NCBI RefSeq assembly: GCF_000479335.1
Contig: NC_022584.1
Location: forward strand, 868,001-932,000
Direction: 5' to 3'
Origin: Streptococcus ilei
GTDB lineage: Bacteria > Bacillota > Bacilli > Lactobacillales > Streptococcaceae
Length of the DNA: 64,000 bases
Shown: one piece after another, positions 56,536-60,525 of the stretch
Layout of the letters: every line of letters starts with the position of its first letter
How positions within the stretch are numbered: the stretch's first letter is position 1
Position numbers and translations under genes: made by a program
The notes under the pieces: model-generated
What the model was told of the DNA's origin: nothing
What the model saw: only the letters and a program-made list of their open reading frames with translations
Databases searched by the model: none

Positions 56536-58272
56536 TTATTCAACCGTTTGTTGGATGGCATGCATCTGGGCATAAATGCCACCATGGGCAATTAAGTCTG
56601 CATGTTGCCCACGTTCGACAATACGTCCTTCTGATAGAACCAGGATCTGATCCGCATCTTGAATGGTCGATAAGCGGTGTGCAATGATAAAGGTGGTCCG
56701 ACCTTTCTGTAGGACTGCCATGGCCTGTTGAATAATCTCCTCTGTCTCCGTATCAATGTGGGAGGTCGCTTCATCCAGAATCAAAATTTTCGGATTCATA
56801 TAGAGGGTTCGAGCAAAGGAAATCAGTTGACGCTCCCCACTTGAGAAGGCGGAACCCTTTTCAACCACTGGATGGTCGATTCCCTTTTCAAGGCGCTCTA
56901 CAAAAGGCCAAGCCCCGACTTTTTTCAGCGCATCTTTGATCGCATCCCGGTCAATATGATCCTGACTCATGGCCACATTACTGGCAATGGTTCCTGTAAA
57001 TAGATAAGGATCTTGCAGAACAATGCCCATGTGGCTTCGCAGGCTCTCACGAGAGACTTGGCGAATATCTTGCCCATCGATCAAAATCGCTCCATCTTGA
57101 GGATCATAGAAACGATAGAGCAGGTTCATAATGGAAGACTTACCTGACCCAGTATGGCCCACAAGGGCGATGGTTTCCCCAGGGCTCGCCTGAAAGGCAA
57201 TATCCTGTAAAACTGGCTTGCCTTCTTCATAAGCAAATTGAACATCATCAAACACGACTTGAGCCTTTTCTATCTTCAGCTCCAATACACCATCGGCCTC
57301 TAAGGGTTGATCCAAGAAGGTAAGGACACGACTCCCCGTCTCTAGTGATCGCCGAATATTCGGAAATTGACGACTAAGGGCAGCCATTAGTTCAAAGAGG
57401 TTCATGACATAGTTGATATTGATAAACAAGAAACCAGCCGTCACACCAATATTCCCTTTTAAGTAAGACATGCCAGCGATGGTCAAAATACCTGCAATGA
57501 CCAAATACTTGAGCAATTCCGTCAAGGTCCAAGAAGCGATTGAATCAGCTAAAAGGATCCGGTCATTAGCCCATAGCATCTTCTGGGTAGTGGCTTCAAA
57601 CTCCTCGATAACATGGGGCTCTTGCCCGTAGAGTTGGATCATGCTGGCACCATGCAAGAGTTCATTGACCTGGGTATTGACCTCGCTTCTCGCATCAAAG
57701 AAATCCTTCATTGGCTGGTCCGTCATGACCTTGTAGAGATACTGGATCCCGTAGAAAATCGGAAAGACCAAACACAAGAGAAGGCCCATCATAGGGCTCA
57801 GGTAAAAGAGAATCCCTAGAACAAAGAGAAAACGTACTAAAAAGATAATCAACACCATACAGGAGTTATAAAACTGAGTCCGCAAGGTTTCCGTATCATT
57901 GACAATTCTTGTCGCGATCTTTCCAGCCGGCTTATCATCAAAATAAGAGATCGGTAGACCTTGCATGACTTGAAAGGCTTGGTCTCTTAGGTTAGCCGTT
58001 ACTTGATTGCTTCCGTGTAGCAAGATCCGATTCCCTAGGTAGCTAATCAGCTGTCCAATGCTTAAGACCAAGAGATAAAAACCTCCCATCTGGAGTAGCT
58101 GACCTTGCTCTCCACTATGGGTCAGTGCGGTCAAAGGCCCATCAATCATCTTTTGAAGAATGAATGGAGACAACTCAGAAAAGATGGTCGCTAATAAGAG
58201 ACAAATAAAGCCAACAAGAAAGACTGTAGGATAAAGCGTGATCCTAGATAATAATCGTTTCAATACTTTCAT
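56536..58272 (-). CDS. Heterodimeric ABC exporter subunit, canonical catalytic site (BmrD-like)
   Basis: The 578-residue half-transporter has six membrane helices (about 15-310) and a C-terminal ATPase. The ATPase has Walker A GHTGSGKSSIMNLL near 370 and Walker B ILILDEATSHIDTET with the catalytic Glu present. The signature, however, is the degenerate FSSGERQLISFAR. Paired with the next gene, whose Walker B ends in Asp, this is the asymmetry of heterodimeric exporters such as BmrCD, LmrCD and TM287/288, where one composite ATP site is inactive. The ATG at 58272, with GGAG upstream, is used; the long in-frame extension to 58518 lies over the partner gene. Likely drug or lipid efflux. Confidence 0.9.
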   Translation of the reverse strand: MKVLKRLLSRITLYPTVFLVGFICLLLATIFSELSPFILQKMIDGPLTALTHSGEQGQLLQMGGFYLLVLSIGQLISYLGNRILLHGSNQVTANLRDQAFQVMQGLPISYFDDKPAGKIATRIVNDTETLRTQFYNSCMVLIIFLVRFLFVLGILFYLSPMMGLLLCLVFPIFYGIQYLYKVMTDQPMKDFFDARSEVNTQVNELLHGASMIQLYGQEPHVIEEFEATTQKMLWANDRILLADSIASWTLTELLKYLVIAGILTIAGMSYLKGNIGVTAGFLFININYVMNLFELMAALSRQFPNIRRSLETGSRVLTFLDQPLEADGVLELKIEKAQVVFDDVQFAYEEGKPVLQDIAFQASPGETIALVGHTGSGKSSIMNLLYRFYDPQDGAILIDGQDIRQVSRESLRSHMGIVLQDPYLFTGTIASNVAMSQDHIDRDAIKDALKKVGAWPFVERLEKGIDHPVVEKGSAFSSGERQLISFARTLYMNPKILILDEATSHIDTETEEIIQQAMAVLQKGRTTFIIAHRLSTIQDADQILVLSEGRIVERGQHADLIAHGGIYAQMHAIQQTVE

Positions 58273-58273
58273 C

Positions 58274-59998
58274 TTATTCTCCTTCCTGTTTTTGTTGCCG
58301 TTGGTATTGTTCGTAGTACCAACCCTCTTGAGCCAGCAGATCACTAGCTCTGCCTTCTTCGACAATCTGTCCTTGATCCAAGACAATGATCCAATCCGCC
58401 TGATGGACAGCAGACAAGCGATGAGAAACAATGATGGTCGTCTTGCCTTTCCGCTCTGTTTGAATGCTGTCAATAATGGCCTGTTCGGTCTTGGCATCCA
58501 CTGCAGAAAGGGAATCATCTAACAACAAGAGATCTGCATCCCTTAAAAAGGCACGCGCCAGAGAGATCCGTTGTTTTTGACCTCCTGATACAGAGACCCC
58601 TTTTTCACCGATCATGGTGTCCATTCCCTGAGACATCCGCTCGAGATCATCCGCAAAAGCAGCTTGGGCTACCGCTTCCACTAAATCCTCTTCACTAGCA
58701 CCATTTTTACCCAGAGCAATATTGTCACGAATGGATTTCGAGAATAAAATATGTTCTTGGGAAACATAGCCAATTTTATCTTCAATGGAGCGCCGGTTGT
58801 AGGCAACGATCGGTTGCTGGTTGACCAAGAATTCTCCCTCACCAACTGGGTACTGCCGCAAGAATTGTCGAACCAGACTAGTCTTTCCTGATCCGGTACG
58901 ACCAACAATCCCTACTATTTGGCCTTTCTGAACGGTCCAATCAATACCTGACAGGCTCTCTCGTTCAGCACCAGGATAGCGGAAGGAATAATCCTTAAAC
59001 TCTACCGAATCAATTTGTTCCAAGAAATGCGGACCATCTGGCTCTAAATCATCTGTTTCATCAATCACTTCTTTTAACTTCTTAAAGGACATTTGCCCAG
59101 TCTGGTAGACCAAGATAAAATCTGATAGCATCCACATAGGCTCAACCAAGAAGACCAAATACAGTTGCAAGGCCAATAGTTTTCCTAAGCTCAATTGCCC
59201 ACTAGCTAAGGATTGACCTCCAAATACCAAGAGTAAGACAGTCGAAACTCCAATAAACAAAAGGGCTAAAGGGCCAAAAGAATATTGAATAGAGGCGATT
59301 TTATCTCCTGTTTTAGCAAGACTAGCTGTTTTTGTTTGGAACTGTTTGACCTGCTGGTCCCGTCTACTATAGGCACGCATGACCCGAATCCCTTCGATAG
59401 ACTCCAAGACCTCATCGTTTAACTGCGCGACTGCTTCCCTGTTTTGCTCAATGTAATCCTCCTGCTTTTTACTCAAAAAATAGGTGGATACGACAAGAAA
59501 TATCATGGGGATAAAACAAATCAAAGTCAATTGCCAAGAAAGGAAAAACATGGCCAATATAATAAAGGTAAATAAACCGCCACCATAAAGGATGATCATC
59601 ATTCCGTAACCAGCCATATCGGCCATGCCATCGACATCTGTCGTAAAGCGCGTCAAGAGATCTCCTGAGCGGAATTTCTCAAAAAAGGGACGCCGCATGG
59701 CTACTAGCTTACGAAATGCTTGCTCCTGAAGGGTCGACTTAAAATGAATGGACGACTGAAAAAGGCGCAACTGCCAATAAAAAGCCGTCAGGTAATTGAG
59801 GATGGCTGATCCTACCAAGAGGACCATATCCCATACAAAGTTGGATTTCGTCAGCGTCTGCTGACTCAAATGATCCACTAAACGCTGAATAACTTGAGTC
59901 GGGATCAATAAGGTATAATCATAAAGAATCAGGACCACAGCAATGCTAATATAGCGCCACTTGCGCTCTCTGATATACTCCCAAATAGCTCTTATCAT
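58274..59998 (-). CDS. Heterodimeric ABC exporter subunit with degenerate catalytic site (BmrC-like)
   Basis: The 574-residue half-transporter has six membrane helices and an ATPase domain with Walker A GRTGSGKTSLVRQF near 370 and a canonical signature VSGGQKQRISLARA near 475. Walker B LLLLDDSLSAVDAKT has Asp in place of the catalytic Glu. The protein therefore donates the degenerate half-site in a heterodimer with the following gene, which starts one base after its stop codon. GGAGAG precedes the ATG. It is the first structural gene after the attenuator-like leader at 60024-60297 and is expected to be induced by compounds that stall translation. Confidence 0.92.
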   Translation of the reverse strand: MIRAIWEYIRERKWRYISIAVVLILYDYTLLIPTQVIQRLVDHLSQQTLTKSNFVWDMVLLVGSAILNYLTAFYWQLRLFQSSIHFKSTLQEQAFRKLVAMRRPFFEKFRSGDLLTRFTTDVDGMADMAGYGMMIILYGGGLFTFIILAMFFLSWQLTLICFIPMIFLVVSTYFLSKKQEDYIEQNREAVAQLNDEVLESIEGIRVMRAYSRRDQQVKQFQTKTASLAKTGDKIASIQYSFGPLALLFIGVSTVLLLVFGGQSLASGQLSLGKLLALQLYLVFLVEPMWMLSDFILVYQTGQMSFKKLKEVIDETDDLEPDGPHFLEQIDSVEFKDYSFRYPGAERESLSGIDWTVQKGQIVGIVGRTGSGKTSLVRQFLRQYPVGEGEFLVNQQPIVAYNRRSIEDKIGYVSQEHILFSKSIRDNIALGKNGASEEDLVEAVAQAAFADDLERMSQGMDTMIGEKGVSVSGGQKQRISLARAFLRDADLLLLDDSLSAVDAKTEQAIIDSIQTERKGKTTIIVSHRLSAVHQADWIIVLDQGQIVEEGRASDLLAQEGWYYEQYQRQQKQEGE

Positions 59999-60023: not shown

Positions 60024-60073
60024 GAAAAAACCCAAGCAAGGAGCTGAGAGCGTGCTCAGTCCACACTTGGGCC
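60024..60073 (-). terminator. Leader terminator T2 of the ABC exporter operon
   Basis: On the minus strand GGCCCAAG (60073-60066 region) pairs with CTTGGGTT (60036-60029 region) with an inner CTGAG/CTCAG stem, followed by six T residues. It lies 26 nt before the start codon of the first ABC gene. The outer arms repeat those of T1. Confidence 0.82.
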
Positions 60074-60120
60074 TTCTGATGCCTATCACCAATTCAGTTA
60101 AGGCAGGCAAAAATGCATAC

Positions 60121-60155
60121 AAAAAACCCAAGACAGACTCCTCCACCTTGGGTTT
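60121..60155 (-). terminator. Leader terminator T1 of the ABC exporter operon
   Basis: AAACCCAAG (60155-60147) and CTTGGGTTT (60132-60124) form a 9-bp stem around a 14-nt loop, then T residues. It starts 10 nt after the leader peptide stop codon, so a ribosome paused at the end of the leader would cover its 5' arm. Confidence 0.85.
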
Positions 60156-60165
60156 CATTCATTTT

Positions 60166-60237
60166 TTAAATCGAACTCAACTGAGATTGGAGAAGTTGTG
60201 TATTCAATTGTGTCATCAAAACATCTACTTTGTTCAT
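60166..60237 (-). CDS. 23-aa leader peptide of the ABC exporter attenuator
   Basis: An ATG at 60237 preceded by AAAGGAG opens a 23-codon frame, MNKVDVLMTQLNTQLLQSQL followed by Ser-Ser-Ile and TAA. It lies directly after a consensus promoter and directly before two tandem terminators, ahead of the two ABC exporter genes. It is Leu/Gln rich (five Leu, five Gln), has no codon run typical of amino-acid operon leaders, and has no export signal. The arrangement is that of a sensor peptide whose translation controls termination, like B. subtilis bmrB in front of bmrCD. That it acts this way is inference. Confidence 0.7.
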   Translation of the reverse strand: MNKVDVLMTQLNTQLLQSQLSSI

Positions 60238-60268
60238 GATGGTTTTCTCCTTTCTCTTTGTTGCTATA

Positions 60269-60297
60269 ACTTTACCACGTATTTCTATGCTTGTCAA
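60269..60297 (-). promoter_or_regulatory. Promoter of the leader-ABC exporter transcript
   Basis: A perfect TTGACA (60297-60292) and TAAAGT (60274-60269) are spaced by 17 nt on the minus strand, about 32 nt before the leader peptide start. Confidence 0.8.
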
Positions 60298-60390: not shown

Positions 60391-60402
60391 TCTCTTCTAC
60401 TA

Positions 60403-60475
60403 TGCTAGTTGCCGGGATTGAACCGGCGACCTCATCCTTACCATGGATGCGCTCTACCGACTGAGCTAAACCAGC
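60403..60475 (-). tRNA. tRNA-Thr (anticodon GGU)
   Basis: The minus strand folds as a 73-nt tRNA. The acceptor arms are GCTGGTT/AACTAGC (one G-U), and the D arm is GCTC AGTCGGTA GAGC. The anticodon stem CATCC/GGATG encloses the loop ATGGTAA with anticodon GGT, and the T arm is CCGG TTCAATC CCGG. The discriminator is A and CCA is not encoded. It reads ACC and ACU, and is the ligand class expected to control the thrS T-box in this window. It stands alone, with its own terminator. Confidence 0.97.
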
Positions 60476-60525
60476 AGTACCTATCTACTATATCATGGAG
60501 ATAGGCCTTTTGTCAATATCCTGAC

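What the first reader, a model, noticed from the sequence alone, without database searches (positions are those of the whole stretch)
60024..60297. Leader peptide plus tandem cross-pairing terminators upstream of a BmrCD-like ABC exporter: a likely translation-sensing attenuator
Seen directly: a TTGACA-17-TAAAGT promoter, a 23-codon ORF with AAGGAG, then terminators T1 (60155-60121) and T2 (60073-60024), then the two exporter genes. T1 and T2 use the same outer arms (CCCAAG and CTTGGG). In RNA order P1-P2-P3-P4, pairing P1:P2 and P3:P4 makes both terminators, while P2:P3 (CTTGGGUU with GGCCCAAG, 8 pairs counting two G-U) breaks both at once. P1 starts only 10 nt after the leader stop codon, so a ribosome held at the end of the leader would hide P1 and favour P2:P3. 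Established precedent: B. subtilis bmrB-bmrCD and other antibiotic-responsive leader ORFs. Inference: drugs that slow translation switch on this exporter. The leader peptide and the double-terminator switch appear unlike described leaders.
Basis: partly seen in the sequence, partly recalled or inferred. Interest (0 to 1): 0.88.

Follow-up and report, generated by a model that had tools for sequence, protein, structure and literature searches.

The report
Tetracycline-pump leader with Shine-Dalgarno decoy
A very short gene and two RNA stop signals sit in front of a tetracycline pump in Streptococcus, and comparison with about a hundred relatives suggests that a ribosome stuck at the start of the short gene lets the pump genes be read.

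Summary
In detail: promoter, 23-codon leader ORF with its own Shine-Dalgarno (SD), tandem terminators T1/T2 with shared arms, then an exporter pair above NCBIfam's cut-offs for TetAB(46), a tetracycline pump. The attenuator reading is well supported; the proposed sensing step (a ribosome at the leader's end hiding P1) is not the best one. Relatives reveal a missed element: an anti-SD (ASD) in the leader's last third pairs with the leader's own SD or with an SD-like stretch in T1. The leader meets a strict definition in 98 of 104 Streptococcus orthologues with upstream DNA and in 0 of 20 more distant homologues. The ASD occurs in all three frames, so RNA rather than peptide is conserved. Over 28 clusters the ASD prefers its own terminator (p 0.0002; four control windows p 0.07-0.69). 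Best model: a ribosome stalled at the start codon, where tetracycline stalls ribosomes in E. coli, frees the ASD; ASD:T1 blocks T1 and frees P2; P2:P3 (13 pairs) then blocks T2. Mechanism steps are computed or inferred; there are no expression data. A new variant of ribosome-mediated transcription attenuation; not found in the papers I could search.

The parts
60269..60297 (-). Promoter TTGACA-17-TAAAGT with TG before the -10; transcription start inferred near 60262
   Evidence: pattern found in 24 of 26 tet(46)-clade leaders
60245..60256 (-). Leader Shine-Dalgarno region GAGAAAGGAGAA (segment 1)
60166..60237 (-). Leader ORF, 23 codons plus stop: MNKVDVLMTQLNTQLLQSQLSSI
   Evidence: one search lists it as a longer TTG-started ORF; conserved in relatives
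60183..60195 (-). ASD, CTTCTCCAATCTC (segment 2): pairs with the leader SD or with the T1 SD-like stretch
   Evidence: CTTCTCCAATCTCA identical in 26 of 26 clade leaders; counterpart CTCCTTTC or variants in other relatives
60121..60155 (-). Terminator T1; P1 60152-60147, P2 60132-60127, then U-tract
   Evidence: -16.9 kcal/mol, z -3.6
60138..60145 (-). SD-like decoy TGGAGGAG in the 5' arm/loop of T1 (segment 3), partner of the ASD
   Evidence: coevolution test
60066..60078 (-). CAGAAGGCCCAAG (P3 plus flank): pairs with P2, the T1 U-tract and the next G (60132-60120, 13 pairs); its P3 part alternatively pairs with P4 in T2
   Evidence: AGAAGGCCCAAG present in 26 of 26 clade leaders
60024..60075 (-). 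Terminator T2; P3 60071-60066, P4 60036-60031
   Evidence: -25.0 kcal/mol, z -4.3
58274..59998 (-). tetA(46), ABC exporter subunit, 574 aa
   Evidence: NCBIfam NF000474 1321.3 bits, cut-off 1250
56536..58272 (-). tetB(46), ABC exporter subunit, 578 aa
   Evidence: NCBIfam NF000475 1296.3 bits, cut-off 1250

Best explanation
It is a ribosome-mediated transcription attenuator that senses slowed translation at the start of a short leader ORF and controls the tetracycline exporter TetAB(46). (1) With normal translation the ribosome covers the ASD, T1 forms, and polymerase stops at T1 or, failing that, at T2. (2) With no translation, the ASD pairs with the leader's own SD as soon as it is made, and T1 also forms. 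(3) When a drug such as tetracycline holds a ribosome on the start codon or the first codons, the SD is covered and the ASD is free; the ASD pairs with the SD-like decoy and 5' arm of T1 before P2 emerges, so T1 fails. (4) In the tet(46) clade P2, freed with its U-tract, pairs with P3 and disables T2 (a relay), and the exporter genes are transcribed. Shown by sequence and comparison: the leader, the ASD, the coevolution of ASD and terminator, and the association with this exporter. Computed: the dependence on ribosome position and the P2:P3 pairing. Inferred: drug induction, kinetics and the effect on transcription.
For: Exporter identity. Leader conservation: strict criterion met in 98 of 104 genus orthologues and 2 of 2 same-order ones given, in 0 of 20 more distant homologues, and once, with weak ASD:T, in 847,630 control bases. 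Exact pattern search of 98 genomes: 13 sites, 11 of them upstream of this exporter, reversed-pattern control 0. ASD in all three frames (54, 9 and 4 of 90 distinct leader ORFs; 23 carry variants not classed). ASD start lies 33-81 nt (median 44.5) after the ATG, beyond a start-codon footprint. ASD:T better than every other leader window in 80 of 83 distinct leaders and p<0.05 against shuffles in 54 of 83. Cognate pairing beats swapped partners over 28 clusters, z -5.3, p 0.0002; four control windows p 0.07-0.69 (p 0.00005). Codon scan: P2:P3 0.98-0.99 at codons 1-9, 0.00-0.35 at codons 10-22. P2:P3 13 pairs. In E. coli tetracycline stalls ribosomes at start codons with the edge at +16 to +18 (PMC12121999 section 9; PMC4909307 passages). 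Removal of the homologous TrexAB lowers tetracycline MIC 16- to 32-fold (PMC12256430).
Against: Once P2 is out, T1 is thermodynamically preferred in every ribosome state tested (0.98-1.00), so step 3 must be kinetic. With no ribosome, ASD:T1 beats SD:ASD at the T1-loop stage (0.93 against 0.02) and P2:P3 also reaches 0.97 once P3 is out, so step 2 too needs SD:ASD to form first and persist. In this sequence alone ASD:T1 is not significant (p 0.08-0.10), and the 129-nt pre-P2 fold is not more stable than shuffles (z -0.98). In 6 of 28 clusters the cognate terminator is no better than the median foreign one. P1-P4 hardly vary within the clade, so P2:P3 has no covariation support. A ribosome at codons 23-24 also exposes the ASD. 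In the bmrB paper the 30S drugs kanamycin and gentamicin did not induce, and tetracycline is a 30S drug. No expression data.
Confidence: 0.72

Rival explanations
1. One reading: a drug-stalled ribosome at the end of the leader covers P1, so P2 pairs with P3 and both terminators fail at once.
For: P2:P3 is strong (13 pairs, -16.8 kcal/mol). With the ribosome at codons 23-24, P2:P3 reaches 0.89-0.99 once P3 is out.
Against: In that computed state the ASD:T1 pairing is also high (0.87-0.94) and P1 is at most grazed (footprint to 60155 or 60152), so P1 occlusion is not needed. The shared-arm T2 was seen only in the tet(46) clade, while the ASD is found across the Streptococcus orthologues examined. 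Normal termination also passes through this position.
Confidence: 0.1
2. Nascent-peptide arrest: the leader peptide with a drug stalls the ribosome at a set codon, as in Erm leaders (recalled); RNA switch as above.
For: Residue 2 is Asn in 67 of 90 distinct leaders, and many leaders end in LLS.
Against: LLS is one frame of the ASD; others read it as TPF/TPY/TPL or SFL, and the middle residues vary widely. A-rich second codons may only favour initiation (inference).
Confidence: 0.1
3. Two ordinary terminators that insulate the exporter from upstream transcription (tRNA-Thr), with a chance leader ORF.
For: A tRNA gene lies upstream; shared arms could come from duplication.
Against: A promoter lies between the tRNA and the leader; leader, ASD and terminator are conserved and coevolve; T1 and T2 differ inside the arms.
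Confidence: 0.05
4. A ligand-binding riboswitch (for example for tetracycline itself) with an incidental ORF.
For: Long structured leader before a drug pump.
Against: No Rfam riboswitch at the gathering score; the recurring parts are SD, ORF, ASD and terminator, and I saw no other conserved core by eye.
Confidence: 0.03

Closest known systems
bmrB-bmrCD attenuator of Bacillus subtilis (PMC4191407, sections 14, 15 and part 1 of section 17 read)
   Same: Leader ORF, terminator and antiterminator before a heterodimeric ABC exporter; induction by ribosome-targeting drugs requires leader translation. In the B. halotolerans locus L121 a leader SD region also pairs with the ORF's later part (-19.6 kcal/mol, p 0.004).
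   Different: There one terminator lies inside a 53-residue coding region; here two lie after the stop of a 23-codon ORF. That paper leaves the role of its anti-antiterminator open, and kanamycin and gentamicin did not induce.
vmlR attenuator of B. subtilis (PMC9226507, abstract and passages)
   Same: Antibiotic-stalled ribosomes on a short uORF prevent an anti-antiterminator, so an antiterminator forms and termination fails.
   Different: The uORF is Met-Ile-Asn and its SD is described as single-stranded; here the SD itself is one strand of the anti-antiterminator. Gene and drugs differ (ABC-F; lincosamide, pleuromutilin, streptogramin A).
toiL uORF of Escherichia coli topAI (PMC12121999, abstract and section 9)
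   Same: A start-codon stall by tetracycline on a uORF changes RNA folding to turn genes on.
   Different: Acts on a ribosome-binding site and Rho-dependent termination, not on intrinsic terminators; toxin-antitoxin target.
patAB terminator of Streptococcus pneumoniae (PMC4319486, abstract and discussion)
   Different: Fluoroquinolone pump.
tet(M) leader attenuation (one table row in PMC5418344, passages)
   Same: Tetracycline-linked transcription attenuation before a resistance gene.
   Different: Ribosome-protection gene; the passages seen describe no SD-decoy design.

Membership tests
Tet(46) tetracycline ABC exporter | Both subunits above NCBIfam curated cut-offs | tested here: met
   1321.3 against 1250 and 1296.3 against 1250 bits
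Ribosome-mediated transcription attenuator (leader-peptide type) | Translatable leader ORF with SD before the regulated genes | tested here: met
   translation itself not shown
Ribosome-mediated transcription attenuator (leader-peptide type) | Intrinsic terminator between leader and genes | tested here: met
   (T1, T2), by folding; the pattern scan did not list them
Ribosome-mediated transcription attenuator (leader-peptide type) | Mutually exclusive antiterminator whose formation depends on ribosome position | tested here: met
   by computation and comparison only; equilibrium favours T1 once P2 is out
Ribosome-mediated transcription attenuator (leader-peptide type) | Drug-induced read-through that requires leader translation | not testable with these tools
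   needs Term-seq and reporter work
bmrB-type attenuator | Terminator inside the leader coding region | tested here: not met
   T1 starts 10 nt after the stop codon
bmrB-type attenuator | SD region of the leader sequestered by later leader sequence (my comparison; not stated as defining in the sections read) | tested here: met
   window -13.9 kcal/mol p 0.007; L121 -19.6 p 0.004
Known Rfam cis-regulatory families | Match at gathering score | tested here: not met
   only the tRNA matched in the window

The most novel reading that the evidence does not exclude
A genus-wide class of attenuators in which the leader's own Shine-Dalgarno and a Shine-Dalgarno copy inside the terminator compete for one anti-SD strand, so that a ribosome merely parked on the start codon is the sensor. 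In the tet(46) clade a strand-exchange relay (ASD:T1, then P2 plus U-tract with P3) opens two terminators in series from that single event.
Probability: 0.45. Interest if true: 0.72.

Novelty: new variant of a known kind. Interest (0 to 1): 0.6.

Why it matters
It offers an explanation, open to test, of how a tetracycline pump of streptococci could be kept silent and switched on by the drug. It suggests a simple, peptide-independent way to sense start-codon stalling. The coevolution points to precise pairings to test. It may also give a role to the unassigned anti-antiterminator of the related bmrB leader.

Tried and rejected
End-of-leader stall hiding P1: not needed and rejected as the main step. 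Peptide arrest: disfavoured by the ASD in three frames. Rfam: no family but tRNA. Mobile origin: the leader has no plasmid match; TetA on plasmids only below 60% identity in the 5000 records kept (a capped list). Spread beyond Streptococcus: (looser start codons; L020-L030 and L061-L140 where upstream DNA was held) 8 of the 10 same-order loci L020, L021, L023-L030 meet the definition, but ASD:T is -8.2 and -9.9 kcal/mol in L020 and L021 and only -0.4 to -6.6 in L023-L026, L028 and L029 (also L070, L073); Bacillales hits are sporadic with mostly weak ASD:T (L127 with -14.0 is an exception). The claim is therefore kept to Streptococcus and a few near relatives. The looser detection passed 173 of 194 upstream regions, many of them from Bacillales, so it is not counted as evidence; it also chose each ORF by its SD pairing, so SD:ASD strength there, and the SD:ASD test, is biased upward (ASD:T was not used in the choice). 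In one search, where several hairpins followed a leader of the S. suis-like group, I took the one with GCCTAG. Covariation by column (68 of 83 rows; 14 tet(46)-clade rows and L186 dropped for lack of the anchor motif): columns -2 and -1 exceed permutation (p 0.0005), columns 6, 7 and 11 weakly (0.01-0.05), the others are invariant or show nothing; the register was chosen by energy, so the swap tests are the ones relied on. The Wilcoxon p 2e-15 treats related sequences as independent and is not relied on. Literature: nine searches ran (one search was on tetracycline stalling); in their listings and in what I opened I saw no account of this leader. Not visible to me: the Tet(46) paper and the Term-seq paper (it included oral bacteria according to a review) are not held, and the full lists behind PMC4448216 (11 attenuators outside Rfam in S. 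agalactiae, passages) and PMC2965389 (205 ABC-transporter candidates, passages) were not read. Any of these could already list such transcripts.

Full report
OBSERVATION. On the minus strand the window holds a promoter (60297-60269), a 23-codon ORF (60237-60166) with SD AAGGAG nine bases before its ATG, terminators T1 and T2 with the shared arms CCCAAG/CTTGGG, and two exporter genes. T1 folds at -16.9 kcal/mol (z -3.6) and T2 at -25.0 (z -4.3). P2 with its U-tract and the next G pairs with CAGAAGGCCCAAG (60078-60066) over 13 pairs at -16.8 kcal/mol; p 0.003 for the best partner of P2 in 60119-60037 against shuffles. The exporter subunits pass NCBIfam's cut-offs for Tet(46) A and B.

RELATIVES. 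The leader DNA occurs nearly whole in 26 of 284 genus genomes, the window's own included (31 of 284 have some match), in each of the 26 before a TetA(46)-like gene that starts 237-239 bases after the leader ATG. Orthologues at E<=1e-150 occur in 105 of 284 genus genomes. Upstream DNA was read for 104 of these (one contig began inside the gene) and for two same-order genomes. A strict definition (SD, ATG ORF of 15-40 codons, at least 6 exact bases in the ORF complementary to the SD region and holding CTCC or CCTT, terminator of -12 kcal/mol or better within 170 bases) is met in 100 of 106 (98 of 104 in the genus), against 0 of 20 upstream regions of more distant homologues (12 same genus, 8 same order; 34-40% identical; short ORFs with an SD are visible by eye in a few, such as L217, L220 and L221) and 1 hit in 847,630 control bases with weak ASD:T. 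In the window the definition also catches two other ORFs, with weak ASD:T (-1.8 and -7.7 against -12.2). The six misses: L178 and L186 have a looser version, L007's leader lies about 0.9 kb upstream of the exporter behind extra sequence, L151 is only 302 bases, L019 holds N and repeats, and in L017 I saw none.

THE MISSED ELEMENT. In the relatives the leader ORF ends with CTCCTTTC or a variant, the complement of its own SD. It sits in different reading frames: of 90 distinct leader ORFs, 54 read it as LLS and the like, 9 as TPF/TPY/TPL and 4 as SFL/TSF; 23 carry variants, such as CTTCTCC of the tet(46) clade, not classed by frame. Of the 9 and 4, three (L018, L201, L202) and one (L015) are from the genus, the rest from other genera. 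L015 and its close relative L016 differ by one base in length between ATG and ASD (61 and 62 bases), which shifts the frame but keeps the ASD. So the RNA is conserved rather than the peptide. The same strand is complementary to an SD-like stretch in the 5' arm or loop of the terminator: it is the best leader window for that terminator in 80 of 83 distinct leaders, and p<0.05 against shuffles in 54 of 83 (12 at p<0.01). Over 28 clusters the cognate ASD:T duplex averages -11.72 kcal/mol against -9.67 for permuted partners (z -5.3, p 0.0002); the window before the ASD, the start region, the window after it and the SD show no such preference (p 0.69, 0.27, 0.07, 0.60), while SD:ASD does (p 0.0018, but ORFs had been chosen by that pairing). 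With looser clustering the result holds: 17 clusters p 0.0004, 7 clusters p 0.008. In 22 of 28 clusters the cognate terminator beats the median foreign one. Within the tet(46) clade the base before CTTCTCCA and its partner after TGGAGGAG read G-U 17, A-U 8, G-C 1 of 26: all can pair.

SPECIFICITY. An exact SD-ATG-ASD pattern occurs at 13 sites in 98 genomes, 11 of them before this exporter; the other two (G056, G041) look like the start of another ORF and were not followed; the reversed control has none. The pattern does not match the tet(46) variant, so the window's own genome shows none.

MECHANISM. With RNA up to the T1 loop and the ribosome at codons 1-9, ASD:T1 has probability 0.94-0.95; it falls to 0.37 at codon 10, 0.00-0.04 at codons 11-21 and 0.24 at codon 22, and rises to 0.92 at 23-24. 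With RNA to the end of P3, P2:P3 is 0.98-0.99 at codons 1-9, 0.00-0.35 at codons 10-22 and 0.89-0.99 at 23-24. So a ribosome near the start allows both pairings and one on the ASD mostly prevents both. With no ribosome at all, both also form at these two stages (0.93 and 0.97), so silence without translation requires the earlier-made SD:ASD helix to persist (inference). Tetracycline in E. coli stalls ribosomes at start codons with footprint edge +16 to +18 (PMC12121999 section 9; PMC4909307 passages); the scan used +16. The ASD starts 33-81 nt after the ATG in the 90 ORFs (median 44.5) and 20-39 nt before the ORF end (median 25), so a start-codon ribosome leaves it free. Weak points: T1 wins at equilibrium once P2 is out in every state (0.98-1.00), and the complete leader folds as T1 plus T2, so the switch must be kinetic; P2:P3 has no covariation because the arms hardly vary.

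COMPARISON. It works like bmrB-bmrCD and vmlR: leader translation, antiterminator, intrinsic terminator. It differs from bmrB by terminators outside the ORF and from vmlR by using the SD itself as an anti-antiterminator strand. A B. halotolerans locus (L121, before a bmrC-like gene) also has a leader SD region that pairs with the later ORF (-19.6 kcal/mol, p 0.004), a lead that the design may be older. I saw no account of this leader in nine paper searches and the passages opened (see Tried and rejected), but the Tet(46) and Term-seq papers were not readable.

VERDICT. A conserved attenuator of a tetracycline exporter; sensing most likely by an early stall through an anti-SD/SD-decoy switch, with a clade-specific tandem-terminator relay. 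New variant of a known kind.

Noticed in passing
L032, L034, L035, L037, L040, L048, L049 (G102, G272, G239, G320, G103, G258, G024): In six genomes leaders 95-98% identical to the window's stand before TetA only 74-76% identical; in G024 the leader is 94% and TetA 90% identical overall with a start of the divergent type. Leader and exporter seem to recombine as modules.
   Followed up: partly
L234 about 1760-2440: In G014 extra sequence with a small ORF lies between the leader terminator and the exporter (leader 0.9 kb upstream), which may uncouple the attenuator.
   Followed up: partly
L121, upstream 565 bases: Bacillus halotolerans: a leader before a bmrC-like gene whose SD region pairs with its later ORF (-19.6 kcal/mol, p 0.004), a possible role for the bmrB anti-antiterminator.
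   Followed up: partly
60043-60038: CTCCTT in the 3' side of T2 is complementary to the SD of tetA (AAGGAG shortly before 59998); a second, translational layer is possible.
   Followed up: no
60402-60476: tRNA-Thr (GGT) lies upstream; the same tRNA sequence precedes the leader in L009 and L234, and its end is seen in L013, so the locus is syntenic in several genomes.
   Followed up: partly
L036 (G275) and L054 (G260): The TetA match has one in-frame stop in G275 and is partial with a stop in G260, while their leaders remain.
   Followed up: no
L005, L006, L064 and kin: In the S. suis-like group the terminator lies about 120-130 bases after the leader stop, with an unexplained stretch between.
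   Followed up: no
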